From: Brucella thiophenivorans
GTDB taxonomy: Bacteria > Pseudomonadota > Alphaproteobacteria > Rhizobiales > Rhizobiaceae
Direction of reading: 5' to 3'
Assembly: GCF_002252445.1 (NCBI RefSeq)
Contig: NZ_NNRJ01000012.1
Location: 62,001-126,000 of the forward strand
DNA length: 64,000 nucleotides
Positions within the stretch are counted from its first letter, which is position 1, and every line of letters starts with the position of its first letter. Below are positions 1-47,683 of the stretch, in pieces. A program made the position numbers and the translations under genes. The notes under the pieces are model-generated. The model saw only the letters and a program-made list of their open reading frames with translations, did no database searches and was not told where the DNA came from.

Positions 1-56
1 CTGTAAATCGGCTTGAAGGAATCCGAGAACACCATGCGTTCAGCCAAGCTGATCAT
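1..56 (-). CDS. RcdA-like DUF1465 protein, 5' end only
   Basis: Only the first 18 codons of a leftward gene are inside the window (MISLAERMVFSDSFKPIY). This resembles, from memory, the N-terminus of the rhizobial DUF1465 family, which includes RcdA, an adaptor that helps deliver the cell-cycle regulator CtrA to the ClpXP protease. A perfect CtrA box lies about 215 bp upstream, which fits a gene in the CtrA circuit. With so little sequence the family assignment is tentative. Confidence 0.45.
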   Translation of the reverse strand, partial: MISLAERMVFSDSFKPIY

Positions 57-268: not shown

Positions 269-283
269 TTAACGTTCGGTTAA
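269..283. promoter_or_regulatory. CtrA box upstream of the rcdA-like gene
   Basis: TTAACGTTCGGTTAA is a perfect match to the full CtrA site TTAA-N7-TTAA. It lies in the AT-rich region upstream of the leftward rcdA-like gene. CtrA is the master cell-cycle response regulator of alphaproteobacteria. The site is seen directly; binding is inferred. Confidence 0.6.
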
Positions 284-354
284 TTTTTCAAGATATTTTT
301 AAACAAAGCGTGAAGAGCAGATAAGGCCAGAGCGCCGATTGCTGAAAAACGCAT

Positions 355-455
355 AAAAAAAAGAGCCGCAAAGGCGGCTCTCAGGAGTTTAACAGGGAGG
401 CGTCAAACAGAGTGGCTAAAACCACTCGGTAAGAATCCAGCCGAACTGGATATAA
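355..455 (-). ncRNA. candidate three-hairpin small RNA
   Basis: Read on the minus strand this stretch gives three consecutive perfect hairpins. The first is ATCCAG/CTGGAT with a UUCGG loop (435-451). The second is GAGTGG/CCACTC (410-427). The third is a Rho-independent terminator, AGAGCCGC/GCGGCTCT with a four-base loop, followed by seven T (355-381). Between hairpins two and three lie unpaired CCTCCC (395-400) and ACTCCT (383-388), both complementary to Shine-Dalgarno sequences. A TATATC -10-like box sits at 449-454 and a perfect CtrA box (476-490) is centred about 40 bp upstream of the expected start. No protein of useful length is encoded. This is the architecture of rhizobial trans-acting sRNAs with anti-SD motifs. 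It is not matched here to a named family. Confidence 0.55.
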
Positions 456-475
456 ACCATTTAACGTTATTAAGA

Positions 476-490
476 TTAATGAAGGGTTAA
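476..490. promoter_or_regulatory. CtrA box at the small-RNA promoter
   Basis: TTAATGAAGGGTTAA is a second perfect TTAA-N7-TTAA site, 207 bp from the first. Further TTAA half-sites at 461 and 470 flank it. Its centre is about 30 bp from the putative -10 of the leftward small RNA, the usual position for a CtrA-activated promoter. Confidence 0.55.
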
Positions 491-517: not shown

Positions 518-541
518 CAAAAAAGCCGCCCGAAGGCGGCT
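518..541 (-). terminator. terminator of the opgC-like gene
   Basis: The hairpin GCCGCC-cgaa-GGCGGC is followed on the minus strand by a run of T, 17 bp after the stop codon of the leftward opgC-like gene. It separates that gene from the downstream small RNA, which would otherwise be reached by read-through. Confidence 0.75.
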
Positions 542-557
542 TTTGAAATCAGTTTTA

Positions 558-1751
558 TCAGGCCTGCTGCAATGCAGGCTTGGCGGTTGAAACGACCAGA
601 GCCTTGGAGCCTTCGGCTGCAACCGGCTTTGCGGCTGGCTTCTTGCCCCAACCAATGGTTGGCAGCCATTCCAGATAATACGCAAGTGCGAACTGCATGA
701 CCACGCCCGTCGCAATCAGCAGCGTATCGTATGGCAGGCCACCCGGATTAACCAGTTTCATAACCTGAGCGACCATCGCCAGAAGTGTACCCGCAATGAA
801 AACAGGCAGTGAATGCTTACCGAGAATCGCCAGTGGATTATCCGCCGAAGTACGCGCAATGCTGTTTAAGGTCGGCACCACGGCAATCAGATAGGCAATT
901 GCCAATATATGCAGAAGACGGGGAGCCGACAGGAATGTTTTGTCGAACCCAGTCAGAACCGCAGGCATACCCATCGAGGCATCAATACCCCAAAGTGGCA
1001 GACGAACCCAAGCGAGCGACAGAACCAAATAACCAACAGCTGCTGCAATCAGTGCAGGATGCGTTGTAAGCTTACCGCCACGGCGCACATGGATCGTACC
1101 AGCAATACCAATGGCAAACAGGAACTGCCACGACAGCGGGTTAAGGAACCACACGCCTTCAGTCGGATAGTTGATTGGTGCCACATGATAAAGCCCCGAC
1201 AACAACCAAACCATGCCCGAAACACCAAGCATAAGCGACAAGCTGATACGAGCAAGCAACAGCATCAGCGGCGTGAGAAGAAGCACGACTGCGTACATTG
1301 ACAGAATGTTATTATAGCCAAGCTGATGACCGAGCGTGACCAGACCAAGCAGCGCCTCGACTGGCTGCTTGATCAGTGGTCCGATATTGATCTGGGTGAG
1401 CAATTCGCGATGTTTAAGGAAAACGGCGGCAGCGGCAAAAATACCAATCGTCGCAAGCGTCGTCATAATGTGCGCTGTATAAAGCACACAGGCGCGACGC
1501 CACATTTTCAGCGTCAGCACAAGCTGATTGCCGGGCGCGAACTTGGAACCATAGGCCAATGCAACCGCCATACCTGAAATCAACACAAACGCTTCTGCAG
1601 AATCAGAAAAGCCAAGGTTTTTATGGGTGAAATGCTCGAAGATTGTTCCGGGCACATGATTGATGAAAATCGTAAGCAGAGCCAAAGCGCGAAACACGTC
1701 GATGCGTGTGTCGCGAACCTTTGGCACTATTTTCGCCGTTTCATTCGTCAT
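558..1751 (-). CDS. OpgC-type membrane acyltransferase, probable cyclic beta-glucan modifier (Cgm-like)
   Basis: The 397-residue protein is almost entirely hydrophobic, with about ten predicted membrane segments. Near the N-terminus it has RIDVFRALALLTIFINHVPG with His32, typical of OpgC/acyltransferase-3 proteins. Family members add succinyl groups to periplasmic glucans, and the Brucella homologue Cgm modifies cyclic beta-1,2-glucan. The start was placed at the ATG at 1751, which has AGG about eight bases upstream; the frame is open further but lacks a better site. The C-terminal 30 residues are polar and probably cytoplasmic. The gene is monocistronic, with its own terminator, and divergent from the ThiE-like gene. 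The family is confident, the substrate inferred. Confidence 0.8.
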   Translation of the reverse strand: MTNETAKIVPKVRDTRIDVFRALALLTIFINHVPGTIFEHFTHKNLGFSDSAEAFVLISGMAVALAYGSKFAPGNQLVLTLKMWRRACVLYTAHIMTTLATIGIFAAAAVFLKHRELLTQINIGPLIKQPVEALLGLVTLGHQLGYNNILSMYAVVLLLTPLMLLLARISLSLMLGVSGMVWLLSGLYHVAPINYPTEGVWFLNPLSWQFLFAIGIAGTIHVRRGGKLTTHPALIAAAVGYLVLSLAWVRLPLWGIDASMGMPAVLTGFDKTFLSAPRLLHILAIAYLIAVVPTLNSIARTSADNPLAILGKHSLPVFIAGTLLAMVAQVMKLVNPGGLPYDTLLIATGVVMQFALAYYLEWLPTIGWGKKPAAKPVAAEGSKALVVSTAKPALQQA

Positions 1752-1994
1752 TTCGCCTGCCTGCTGTTTGTTTTTCCATCTGCGATAGTGCAGCACTCAT
1801 TGCCGCCTTATATAACGGGTAATTCGGTCAGAACCCGGTTGGTTCCAATCAACTTTCGTTCCAGTGGATAACATAATGCCAACAGCCGGCTTCCACGCCC
1901 CCAACAAAGCTGAGCGAATATAAAGAGGGCTGTTCAACGCACTCCTCTTACTTTATGCCCGAATTCCATCAACATTTTTCGCTAGGTTTGGTTT

Positions 1995-14901: not shown

Positions 14902-15044
14902 GGCTGCGCCCTCCCGATCATTAACGCTGCACCATATTTATATGGGTGCACCCATCTCGATGCAAAAGACTACGCGCTGGAGCCCTTGAAAACCATGGCT
15001 GATTGTTTGGATAAGTTTCAAAACAAAGGAAAAGTGGCGACCAC

Positions 15045-15205
15045 GACAACCGATGGTAGTGTTTGATCCCGGATACCTACAACGTAGGTGGGTGCCATAT
15101 GCGAAAGCCCACGGGCCTTCACAGGGACAGCTCCCTTAGAGATCAGTAAGGCCCCGGGGATGCTGTTACACCTGTCGGGAAGCGCAGTACGCCGACAACC
15201 TATAT
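15045..15205 (-). ncRNA. ssrS: probable 6S RNA
   Basis: The 360-bp gap between the cyclo-ligase and zapA genes is where 6S RNA lies across proteobacteria. It holds a GC-rich, highly structured block: GGGCCTT/AAGGCCC around AGGGA/TCCCT, TGTCGG/CCGACA, GTGGG/CCCAC and ACCTAC/GTAGGT. 6S RNA mimics an open promoter and binds the housekeeping RNA polymerase. The minus strand is favoured by gene order, a TATATA box just before the block (15202-15207 region) and GTGG/CCAC plus a T-rich run after it. Strand and ends are approximate. Confidence 0.6.
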
Positions 15206-41582: not shown

Positions 41583-41682
41583 AAATCGCTCATAACACGC
41601 AGGAATCCTTCCCGGAAGCCTGCTTGTTGAAGATGCACTCCCTTGCCCTTCTTCGAGCAAAGCACTATTGTTGATCTTGCTC

Positions 41683-41777
41683 TAACGGGGTGCCATTCGA
41701 TCTTTGAATGGCTGAGAGGCCGCACTCCGGCTAACCCGCTGAACCTGATCCGGTTTGTACCGGCGGAGGGATTAGAT
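41683..41777 (+). promoter_or_regulatory. TPP riboswitch
   Basis: The sequence contains the conserved THI-box blocks in order: GGGGTGCC, GGCTGAGAGGC, ACCCGCTGAACCTGATCCGG and ACCGGCGGAGGGATTA. It lies about 60 bp before thiB. TPP binding should reduce expression of thiBPQ, probably by hiding the AAGGA ribosome site. Confidence 0.95.
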
Positions 41778-41837
41778 GCTGCCCTTTATCCATAACGGCG
41801 CTCAATCCTTTTCAATATGAAGAAAGGACATGCCGTT

Positions 41838-46887: not shown

Positions 46888-47571
46888 ATGGACATTCGAA
46901 TCAATTCACTGCTGGCCGGAAAGATCGCACCATTGGGCGCACGGCAGGCACCGAGTGCCATTGATAAGAAGGCAGTTTCCGGCCCTGTCCGGCTTTTGCG
47001 CGATGGTCTTGAATGCGACGAGCAAGGCGACAGAAAAGTCCATGGTGGTCCTGAAAAGGCTGTTCATCATTACCCACATGATCACTATGCGCTCTGGCGC
47101 GAGGATGTCGGTGACCATCCCCATCTTGATGCAACTGGCGCTTTTGGTGAAAATATCTCAACCACCGGACTGACCGAGCACAATGTGGCTATCGGCGATC
47201 GCTTTCGCCTGGGCACAGCGGTGGTCGAGGTGTCGCAAGGCAGACAACCATGCTGGAAACTCAATGCACGCTTCGATATACCTGATATGGCAATGCGTGT
47301 GCAGAAAACCGGACGCACCGGCTGGTATTATCGGGTATTGGAAGAGGGTGTGGTCAGCGACAACTATACAATGCAGCTTGTCGAACGTTTATCGCCCGAA
47401 TGGACCCTGCACCGAGTATGGCATCTGCTATACGTCGATATGCTCAACTATGACGAGCTCGCACTGATGGCCGAGGTTCCCCACCTTGCCGACGGCTGGA
47501 AGCGTTATGCCGTCCGCCGTCTTGAAAACCGCAAGGTCGAAGACTGGTCATCGCGCCTTGAAGGCAAATAG
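46888..47571 (+). CDS. MOSC-domain protein (YiiM-like)
   Basis: The 227-residue protein has the MOSC core with conserved cysteine (VSQGRQPCWKLNARF) and the N-terminal DGDRKVHGG-like DRKVHGGPEKAVHHYP. MOSC proteins handle molybdenum-cofactor sulfur chemistry; YiiM reduces N-hydroxylated compounds. ATG 46888 follows GGGGAG. It begins 15 bp after the protease gene. Confidence 0.88.
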   Translation: MDIRINSLLAGKIAPLGARQAPSAIDKKAVSGPVRLLRDGLECDEQGDRKVHGGPEKAVHHYPHDHYALWREDVGDHPHLDATGAFGENISTTGLTEHNVAIGDRFRLGTAVVEVSQGRQPCWKLNARFDIPDMAMRVQKTGRTGWYYRVLEEGVVSDNYTMQLVERLSPEWTLHRVWHLLYVDMLNYDELALMAEVPHLADGWKRYAVRRLENRKVEDWSSRLEGK

Positions 47572-47674
47572 AGCGTGTGGCGCTTAATCGTATCCACCTC
47601 GCTCGCTCTATCCATTTGTTTTTAAGCATGTCTTTATCCCAAAATCGGTTCCCACTTTTGGGAGACATGCGCTA
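47570..47674. repeat. dispersed palindromic repeat, copy 7
   Basis: AGAGCGTGTGG at the left, and at the right the full consensus in reverse (TTTGTTTTTAAGCATGTC, CCCAAAATCGGTTCCCACTT, GGGAGACATGCGCTAG). It overlaps the TAG stop of the MOSC gene. Confidence 0.7.
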
Positions 47675-47683
47675 GGACTAACT

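What the first reader, a model, noticed from the sequence alone, without database searches (positions are those of the whole stretch)
355..490. Candidate CtrA-controlled small RNA with anti-Shine-Dalgarno stretches
The minus strand shows three perfect hairpins in 100 bases. The last is a classical intrinsic terminator, and unpaired CCTCCC and ACTCCT lie between stems. Upstream is a -10-like TATATC, with a perfect TTAA-N7-TTAA centred about 30 bp before it. This combination suggests a cell-cycle-timed trans-acting RNA that blocks ribosome sites, next to a gene that looks like rcdA, itself part of the CtrA circuit.
Basis: partly seen in the sequence, partly recalled or inferred. Interest (0 to 1): 0.75.

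Follow-up and report, generated by a model that had tools for sequence, protein, structure and literature searches.

The report
CtrA-boxed small RNA beside rcdA
The stretch encodes a known but functionally uncharacterised bacterial small RNA, and comparison with relatives shows that its promoter carries a deeply conserved binding-site motif of the cell-cycle master regulator CtrA, which suggests an RNA arm of the cell-cycle circuit that can be tested in harmless laboratory species.

Summary
The hairpins at 355-490 (minus strand) are real. They belong to Rfam family RF02356 (BjrC1505): 75.3 bits, threshold 50. The S. meliloti counterpart is very probably Sm84/SmelC671, with no function assigned in the passages I saw. 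My reading: a ~97-nt RNA at 451-355 with four stem-loops, CCUCCC in loop 3 and an intrinsic terminator. The first ~48 positions of the Rfam match are promoter, not RNA.

The CtrA idea gains strong comparative support. Among 79 loci selected by RcdA protein and then by a model that leaves the box out, 61 have an exact TTAA-N7-TTAA upstream and 78 have it with at most one mismatch; in 77 of these 78 it starts 34-36 nt before the model. This fits the -39 position of the activating CtrA site of Caulobacter ctrA P2. The box is also exact in all five loci examined that lack rcdA in the fetched flanks.

The target side is unproven. The CCUCCC loop is nearly invariant, but duplexes with the ctrA, gcrA and rcdA leaders were no clear improvement on shuffles, and no target set stood out. 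Transcription and CtrA binding are not shown in this organism, a Brucella/Ochrobactrum relative.

The parts
355..451 (-). small RNA, about 97 nt (predicted +1 near 451, end in the T run at 355)
   Evidence: fold z -6.32; covers the conserved part of the Rfam match 499-356; the S. meliloti counterpart measures 100 nt between the same landmarks, the length listed for SmelC671. The 5' end is inferred.
476..490 (-). box A, CtrA-type TTAACCCTTCATTAA, first base at -39 of the predicted start
   Evidence: conserved in 78 of 79 RcdA-selected loci with at most one mismatch
459..464 (-). likely -10 element TTAAAT
   Evidence: falls on the weakly conserved T/A-rich columns (TATTACT-like) 26-32 nt after the box start
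435..451 (-). stem-loop 1 (AUCCAG..CUGGAU)
410..427 (-). stem-loop 2 (GAGUGG..CCACUC)
387..408 (-). stem-loop 3, which presents CCUCCC; GACGCCUCCCUGUU is the most conserved stretch of the RNA
   Evidence: for the fold, for conservation; the long stem of this hairpin is not in the consensus fold of relatives
355..382 (-). intrinsic terminator
269..283 (-). box B, second CtrA-type site, just upstream of a CTTGCG -35-like element and of rcdA
   Evidence: at most one mismatch in 24 of 28 same-family loci and 5 of 30 other loci of the order
1..56 (-). start of rcdA (cut by the window edge)
521..544 (-). terminator of the upstream opgC gene, which separates it from the small RNA
   Evidence: OpgC_C 355.3 bits for 558-1757(-)

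Best explanation
A roughly 97-nt trans-acting small RNA of family RF02356, transcribed from its own CtrA-dependent promoter. Phosphorylated CtrA would bind TTAA-N7-TTAA at -39 to -25 and recruit RNA polymerase to a promoter without a standard -35, so that the RNA accumulates when CtrA is high (late, predivisional cells in the Caulobacter scheme). The RNA would present CCUCCC in a loop flanked by nearly invariant GACG and UGUU and pair with G-rich ribosome-binding sites, which lowers translation of target mRNAs. It would thus give CtrA, mainly known as a transcription factor, a post-transcriptional repressive arm. Shown by sequence comparison: RNA family, stems, terminator, the box and its fixed place, the link to rcdA. 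Inferred: start site, CtrA binding, timing, pairing mode, targets.
For: Family and single copy. Wide occurrence: 166 of 199 genomes of the order, 139 over the cut-off, 0 of 14 control genomes. Stems: 13 of 16 pairs with two-sided changes. Box with a promoter-free model on RcdA-selected loci: exact 61 of 79, at most one mismatch 78 of 79; other spacings 0-5 exact; control window 0 of 79. Box among Rfam-selected loci: 60 of 60, 74 of 79 and 10 of 10 with at most one mismatch (there the Rfam model itself covers the box, so these are partly circular). Box exact in five loci without rcdA in the fetched flank; two of those genomes have rcdA about 41 kb away and one has no RcdA match. CtrA is encoded in this genome, 418.7 bits, cut-off 350. 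Position -39 is that of the activating full site at Caulobacter ctrA P2 (PMC4287350, passages). CtrA ChIP-seq in S. meliloti binds the rcdA promoter region while rcdA expression does not change on CtrA depletion (PMC4433202, passages), as expected if part of that binding serves the RNA.
Against: No expression or binding data for this organism. The S. meliloti peak could be box B rather than box A. Valverde et al. predicted a sigma-70 promoter for sm84 (PMC2573895, passages). Their listed sizes, about 110 and about 80 nt, do not agree exactly with 97-100. Five of 79 lower-scoring order loci and one of 79 RcdA-selected loci have more than one mismatch in the box. Target tests failed: own-genome search for the extended complement found the gene itself and one other site; AACA before GGGAGG was 19 of 139, not above CCAA 22 or AAAC 18; duplexes with ctrA, gcrA and rcdA leaders were matched by 165, 30 and 256 of 300 shuffles.
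Confidence: 0.68

Rival explanations
1. The box belongs to rcdA; the RNA has an ordinary constitutive promoter and merely lies between.
For: rcdA is a CtrA-linked gene; rcdA follows in 58 of 60 loci; CtrA motifs are reported for rcdA (PMC3616915, PMC4287350, passages); a sigma-70 promoter was predicted for sm84.
Against: The box keeps 34-36 nt to the RNA in 77 of 78 loci, while rcdA begins 144-358 nt after the Rfam match end. It stays where rcdA is not adjacent. A terminator lies between. rcdA often has its own box B.
Confidence: 0.1
2. A cis element: leader or attenuator of rcdA, or the 3' end of the upstream gene, rather than a trans-acting RNA.
For: Same strand as opgC and rcdA, with about 300 nt to the rcdA start.
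Against: opgC has its own terminator at 544-521; the RNA has its own terminator and promoter box; it exists away from rcdA. In S. meliloti it is listed as a separate 100-nt transcript.
Confidence: 0.08
3. The same motif is read by another regulator, or CtrA represses here instead of activating.
For: Only sequence evidence; TTAA half-sites can also repress in Caulobacter (PMC4287350, passages).
Against: Full N7 site at -39 is the activating layout of ctrA P2; no standard -35/-10 pair was found.
Confidence: 0.14
4. The conserved GACGCCUCCCUGUU binds a protein or another RNA (sponge), not ribosome-binding sites.
For: Near-invariance over 14 nt is more than an anti-SD of six bases needs; no target set found.
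Against: CU-rich loops of several rhizobial RNAs are reported to act at ribosome-binding sites (PMC7143759, passages).
Confidence: 0.15

Closest known systems
BjrC1505 (Rfam RF02356) / SmelC671 = Sm84 in S. meliloti / ReC71 in R. etli
   Same: Same RNA: 75.3 bits here; conserved CUCCCUGU and 3' terminator reported for the SmelC671 family (PMC3927594, sections 2.2.4 and 2.3 and passages)
   Different: Nothing structural. The Rfam model runs about 48 nt into the promoter; the S. meliloti copy scores only 27.8 bits. That BjrC1505 and SmelC671 are one family is my inference from locus, motif and length. CtrA control was not mentioned in the passages I saw.
CcnA of Caulobacter (PMC8959179, abstract and passages)
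   Same: Non-coding RNA reported as presumably CtrA-activated, with a C-rich loop that meets G-rich leaders
   Different: Lies at the replication origin; acts on ctrA and gcrA. Here no pairing with those leaders beyond shuffles. The authors did not clearly detect a CcnA-like homologue in S. meliloti.
EcpR1 and GspR of S. meliloti (PMC4414408, PMC5928217, abstracts and passages)
   Same: Small RNAs acting on cell-cycle genes
   Different: Other loci (divK-pleD/rpmG; SMc03844-SMc03845) and other loop motifs; stress or stationary-phase control
AbcR, NfeR1, MmgR anti-SD RNAs (PMC7143759, passages)
   Same: CU-rich anti-SD motif in loops, terminator hairpin; 27.2 bits to the mmgR (suhB) model
   Different: Below that model's threshold of 41; one CCUCCC loop, not CCUCCUCCC in every loop; CtrA-type promoter

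Membership tests
Rfam RF02356 BjrC1505 | covariance score over the gathering threshold (50 bits) | tested here: met
   75.3 bits, full length
Rfam RF02356 BjrC1505 | all 140 model positions are RNA | tested here: inconclusive
   Positions 1 to about 48 hold the box and -10 region; no transcript data here
CtrA regulon | TTAA-N7-TTAA with 7-nt spacing, conserved | tested here: met
   61 of 79 exact, 78 of 79 with at most one mismatch, other spacings 0-5 exact. With one mismatch allowed, N3 and N12 also reach 60 and 63 of 79, because of TTAA-like neighbours
CtrA regulon | box over the -35 region of the start | tested here: met
   first base at -39 of the inferred start; the start itself is not measured
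CtrA regulon | ctrA gene present in the genome | tested here: met
   G000:C77:1072-1743, 418.7 bits, cut-off 350
CtrA regulon | CtrA binding and CtrA-dependent transcription | not testable with these tools
   S. meliloti ChIP-seq binds the rcdA promoter region but does not separate box A from box B in the passages seen
anti-Shine-Dalgarno trans-acting RNA | exposed CU-rich loop | tested here: met
   CCUCCC in the loop of stem-loop 3, nearly invariant
anti-Shine-Dalgarno trans-acting RNA | complementary ribosome-binding sites selected for | tested here: not met
   no enrichment of the extended complement; no pairing beyond shuffles for three leaders
MmgR/suhB (RF00519) | score over 41 bits | tested here: not met
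   27.2 bits
EcpR1 | loop motif UCCGCCGCAUCU; locus downstream of divK-pleD | tested here: not met
   motif absent from 451-355; neighbours are opgC and rcdA
CcnA | locus at the replication origin; pairing with ctrA and gcrA leaders | tested here: not met
   neighbours opgC and rcdA; duplexes matched by 165 and 30 of 300 shuffles. The origin itself was not located

The most novel reading that the evidence does not exclude
An ancient CtrA-driven RNA, older than the order, closes a loop on the CtrA circuit itself: CtrA makes the RNA, and the RNA tunes translation of factors that limit CtrA or drive the next phase (for example rcdA or gcrA), so that the linkage with rcdA is functional. My pairing tests do not support this but cannot exclude it, because weak or protein-assisted pairing would be missed.
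Probability: 0.15. Interest if true: 0.85.

Novelty: new member of a known kind. Interest (0 to 1): 0.6.

Why it matters
CtrA is one of the best studied bacterial cell-cycle regulators. A small RNA that carries a CtrA site across an order and beyond would be a general post-transcriptional output of CtrA; the CtrA-linked RNA known to me from these papers, CcnA, was described in Caulobacter. It also offers a concrete account of an unexplained result: CtrA binds upstream of S. meliloti rcdA, yet rcdA expression does not respond to CtrA depletion (PMC4433202). In the S. meliloti start-site map, starts within 300 nt of a start codon in the same orientation could be classed as putative mRNA starts, and CtrA motifs were searched only upstream of protein genes (PMC3616915, passages), so an RNA in this place could have been booked to rcdA. 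That last step is inference.

Tried and rejected
EcpR1 was my first guess from memory; its loop and locus differ, so it was dropped. GspR and GsrN were considered and dropped on locus.

Feedback on rcdA by base pairing: the window's rcdA leader holds AACAGGGA, complementary to 8 nt of the RNA, but among the 58 loci with rcdA an 8-nt-or-longer match is rare and of varying sequence and place, and the duplex was matched by 256 of 300 shuffles.

Targets: 23 own-genome sites CAGGGAGG-N3-10-ATG against 1 for the reversed pattern; the reversed pattern is a poor control because it is not a ribosome site. Pfam on some of the encoded proteins gave several transporter binding proteins. AACAGGGAGG before ATG occurs in 64 of 81 family genomes, some of which have no RF02356 match (for example G203). 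The prefix control removed the signal. The RNase J gene has AACAGGGAGGCAT-N-ATG in 5 congeners fetched, but the own-genome hit of that pattern is another small frame.

Weak points of my own controls: the 86-locus profile and alignment A2 were chosen from 134 loci already required to have the box with at most one mismatch, so the half-site information there is partly by construction; model R1 comes from A2. R1 starts after the box, and at least two of the 79 test loci (L111, L123) have the contig lengths of training rows L055 and L047.

Full report
What is there. The minus strand at 355-490 carries a small-RNA gene. Rfam finds RF02356 (BjrC1505) at 499-356 with 75.3 bits, threshold 50, and one copy in the own genome. 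The RNA as I delimit it, 451-355, folds into four stem-loops at -39.3 kcal/mol, z -6.32. The last is an intrinsic terminator; another terminator at 544-521 ends the upstream opgC gene. Downstream on the same strand is rcdA (DUF1465, 190.7 bits). The closest named relative by RcdA is Brucella pseudogrignonensis at 96%, so the window comes from a Brucella/Ochrobactrum relative; the tool warns that nearer records may be left out.

How widespread. In a sample of the order, 166 of 199 genomes match and 139 pass the cut-off, with 0 of 14 controls. In the family 120 of 151 match and 85 pass. In a class sample 25 of 240 match and 12 pass, the own genome and one other of the order among them. Rfam undercounts: the S. 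meliloti copy scores 27.8 bits. With a model built only from the RNA part, 79 of 80 named loci found by RcdA protein have the RNA upstream of rcdA on the same strand; the exception is L102. Of 30 RcdA loci of the class (the best 30 of 66 genomes with RcdA, out of 190 searched) 11 have a match at E up to 0.1, one of them cut off at the locus end. Among the 60 best-scoring loci, 58 have rcdA 144-358 nt downstream.

Structure. In 60 aligned relatives, 13 of 16 predicted pairs show at least one two-sided change that keeps the pair. The nearly invariant part is not a stem but GACGCCUCCCUGUU; a few rows (for example L227, L228, L230, L231) are shifted variants ending in UUCUCCCUG. The long stem around CCUCCC in the window is not in the consensus fold.

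Where it starts. In S. meliloti 4H41 (L144) the distance from the first hairpin to the end of the T run is 100 nt, the length listed for SmelC671, 2986421-2986520 (PMC2873474, one passage). Sm84 lies between two genes of the same direction, SMc03988 and SMc03989, with listed sizes about 110 and about 80 nt (PMC2573895, passages; column headings not seen, and I take the second as observed). That SMc03989 is rcdA, and that L144 holds SmelC671, is inferred from order, direction, length and the CUCCCUGU motif reported for that family (PMC3927594). On this basis the first ~48 positions of the Rfam match are promoter.

The CtrA box. Box A, TTAACCCTTCATTAA at 490-476, starts at -39 of the inferred start. 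In Rfam-selected loci the N7 site is exact in 42 of 60, 31 of 79 and 4 of 10, and has at most one mismatch in 60 of 60, 74 of 79 and 10 of 10. The 79 are 60 further hits (the next 20 and 40 of the lowest listed) and 20 low ones, one duplicate (L181) dropped; the 10 lie outside the order. Since Rfam's model covers the box, I repeated the test on RcdA-selected loci with the promoter-free model: exact 61 of 79, at most one mismatch 78 of 79, at 34-36 nt before the model in 77 of 78; the miss is L145 with two mismatches. Other spacings gave 0-5 exact sites, and a window 100-150 nt upstream gave none. With one mismatch allowed, N3 and N12 score 60 and 63, because TTAA-like words stand next to the box; the exact counts separate the spacings. 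Nine further RcdA-selected loci from the class sample, two of them of the order, all have a site with at most one mismatch, one exact, but at 27-48 nt, so the support is looser there.

Box A goes with the RNA, not with rcdA. In five loci without rcdA in the fetched flank (L042, L046, L063, L064, L066) the box is exact. In the genomes of L063 and L064 rcdA lies about 41 kb away, and in that of L066 no RcdA match was found. A second box, B, near rcdA (window 283-269) has at most one mismatch in 24 of 28 same-family loci but only 5 of 30 other loci of the order, where box A has 30 of 30.

Reading. CtrA is encoded in this genome. In Caulobacter a full TTAA-N7-TTAA at -39 is the likely activating site of ctrA P2, and six non-coding RNAs are among the cell-cycle starts with CtrA motifs (PMC4287350, passages). 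CtrA binds the rcdA promoter region of S. meliloti in ChIP-seq, but rcdA expression does not respond to CtrA depletion (PMC4433202, passages). The RNA promoter offers an explanation; box B is the alternative. I therefore hold that this is a CtrA-activated RNA; binding, timing and start are inferred.

What it does. The loop looks like an anti-Shine-Dalgarno module, as in AbcR, NfeR1 and MmgR (PMC7143759, passages). My target tests were negative or unspecific: one extra extended site, no prefix enrichment (AACA 19 of 139, CCAA 22, AAAC 18), and no convincing pairing with ctrA, gcrA or rcdA leaders (165, 30 and 256 of 300 mononucleotide shuffles as good). The 8-nt match to the window's rcdA leader is not conserved. 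The mechanism at the target is therefore the weakest part.

Known or new. The RNA is known as a family. A link to CtrA was not mentioned in the passages I saw, and searches for BjrC1505/EcpR1, SmelC671/ReC71, sm84, SMc03989, CtrA with rcdA and ChIP-seq, CtrA with small RNA, Brucella and rcdA, and CtrA-regulated with sRNA and Rhizobiales listed no paper that makes it; supplements could not be read and the original BjrC description (recalled) is not held. Of the papers cited I saw abstracts, named sections or passages, none in full.

Noticed in passing
window 269-283: Second TTAA-N7-TTAA (box B) followed by CTTGCG, upstream of rcdA; frequent in the family, rare elsewhere in the order.
   Followed up: yes
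window 15035-15193 (-): 6S RNA, 69.3 bits.
   Followed up: no
window 41676-41788 (+): TPP riboswitch, 74.5 bits.
   Followed up: no
window 47520-47682 (-): Match to Brucella sRNA CI27 (RF02600), 62.6 bits, just over its threshold of 59.8.
   Followed up: no
window 348-423 (-): Sub-threshold similarity to the mmgR/suhB family (27.2 bits, threshold 41), also in S. meliloti (21.8): possibly a shared ancestry of CCUCCCU-plus-terminator RNAs, or just similar terminators.
   Followed up: no
L144, L148, L149, L151: Sinorhizobium, Shinella and Rhizobium-type copies have a changed core (UUUUCUCCCUGUUUUACCUUGAGAGCC) although the box stays; their partner RNAs may have changed with it.
   Followed up: partly
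L317-L321: Five congeners have AACAGGGAGGCAT-N-ATG before a gene that looks like RNase J (by eye), an 11-nt complement of the RNA; the same pattern in the own genome precedes another small frame.
   Followed up: partly
(G017, G024, G049, G097, G345, G552): A few genomes list two RF02356 matches.
   Followed up: no
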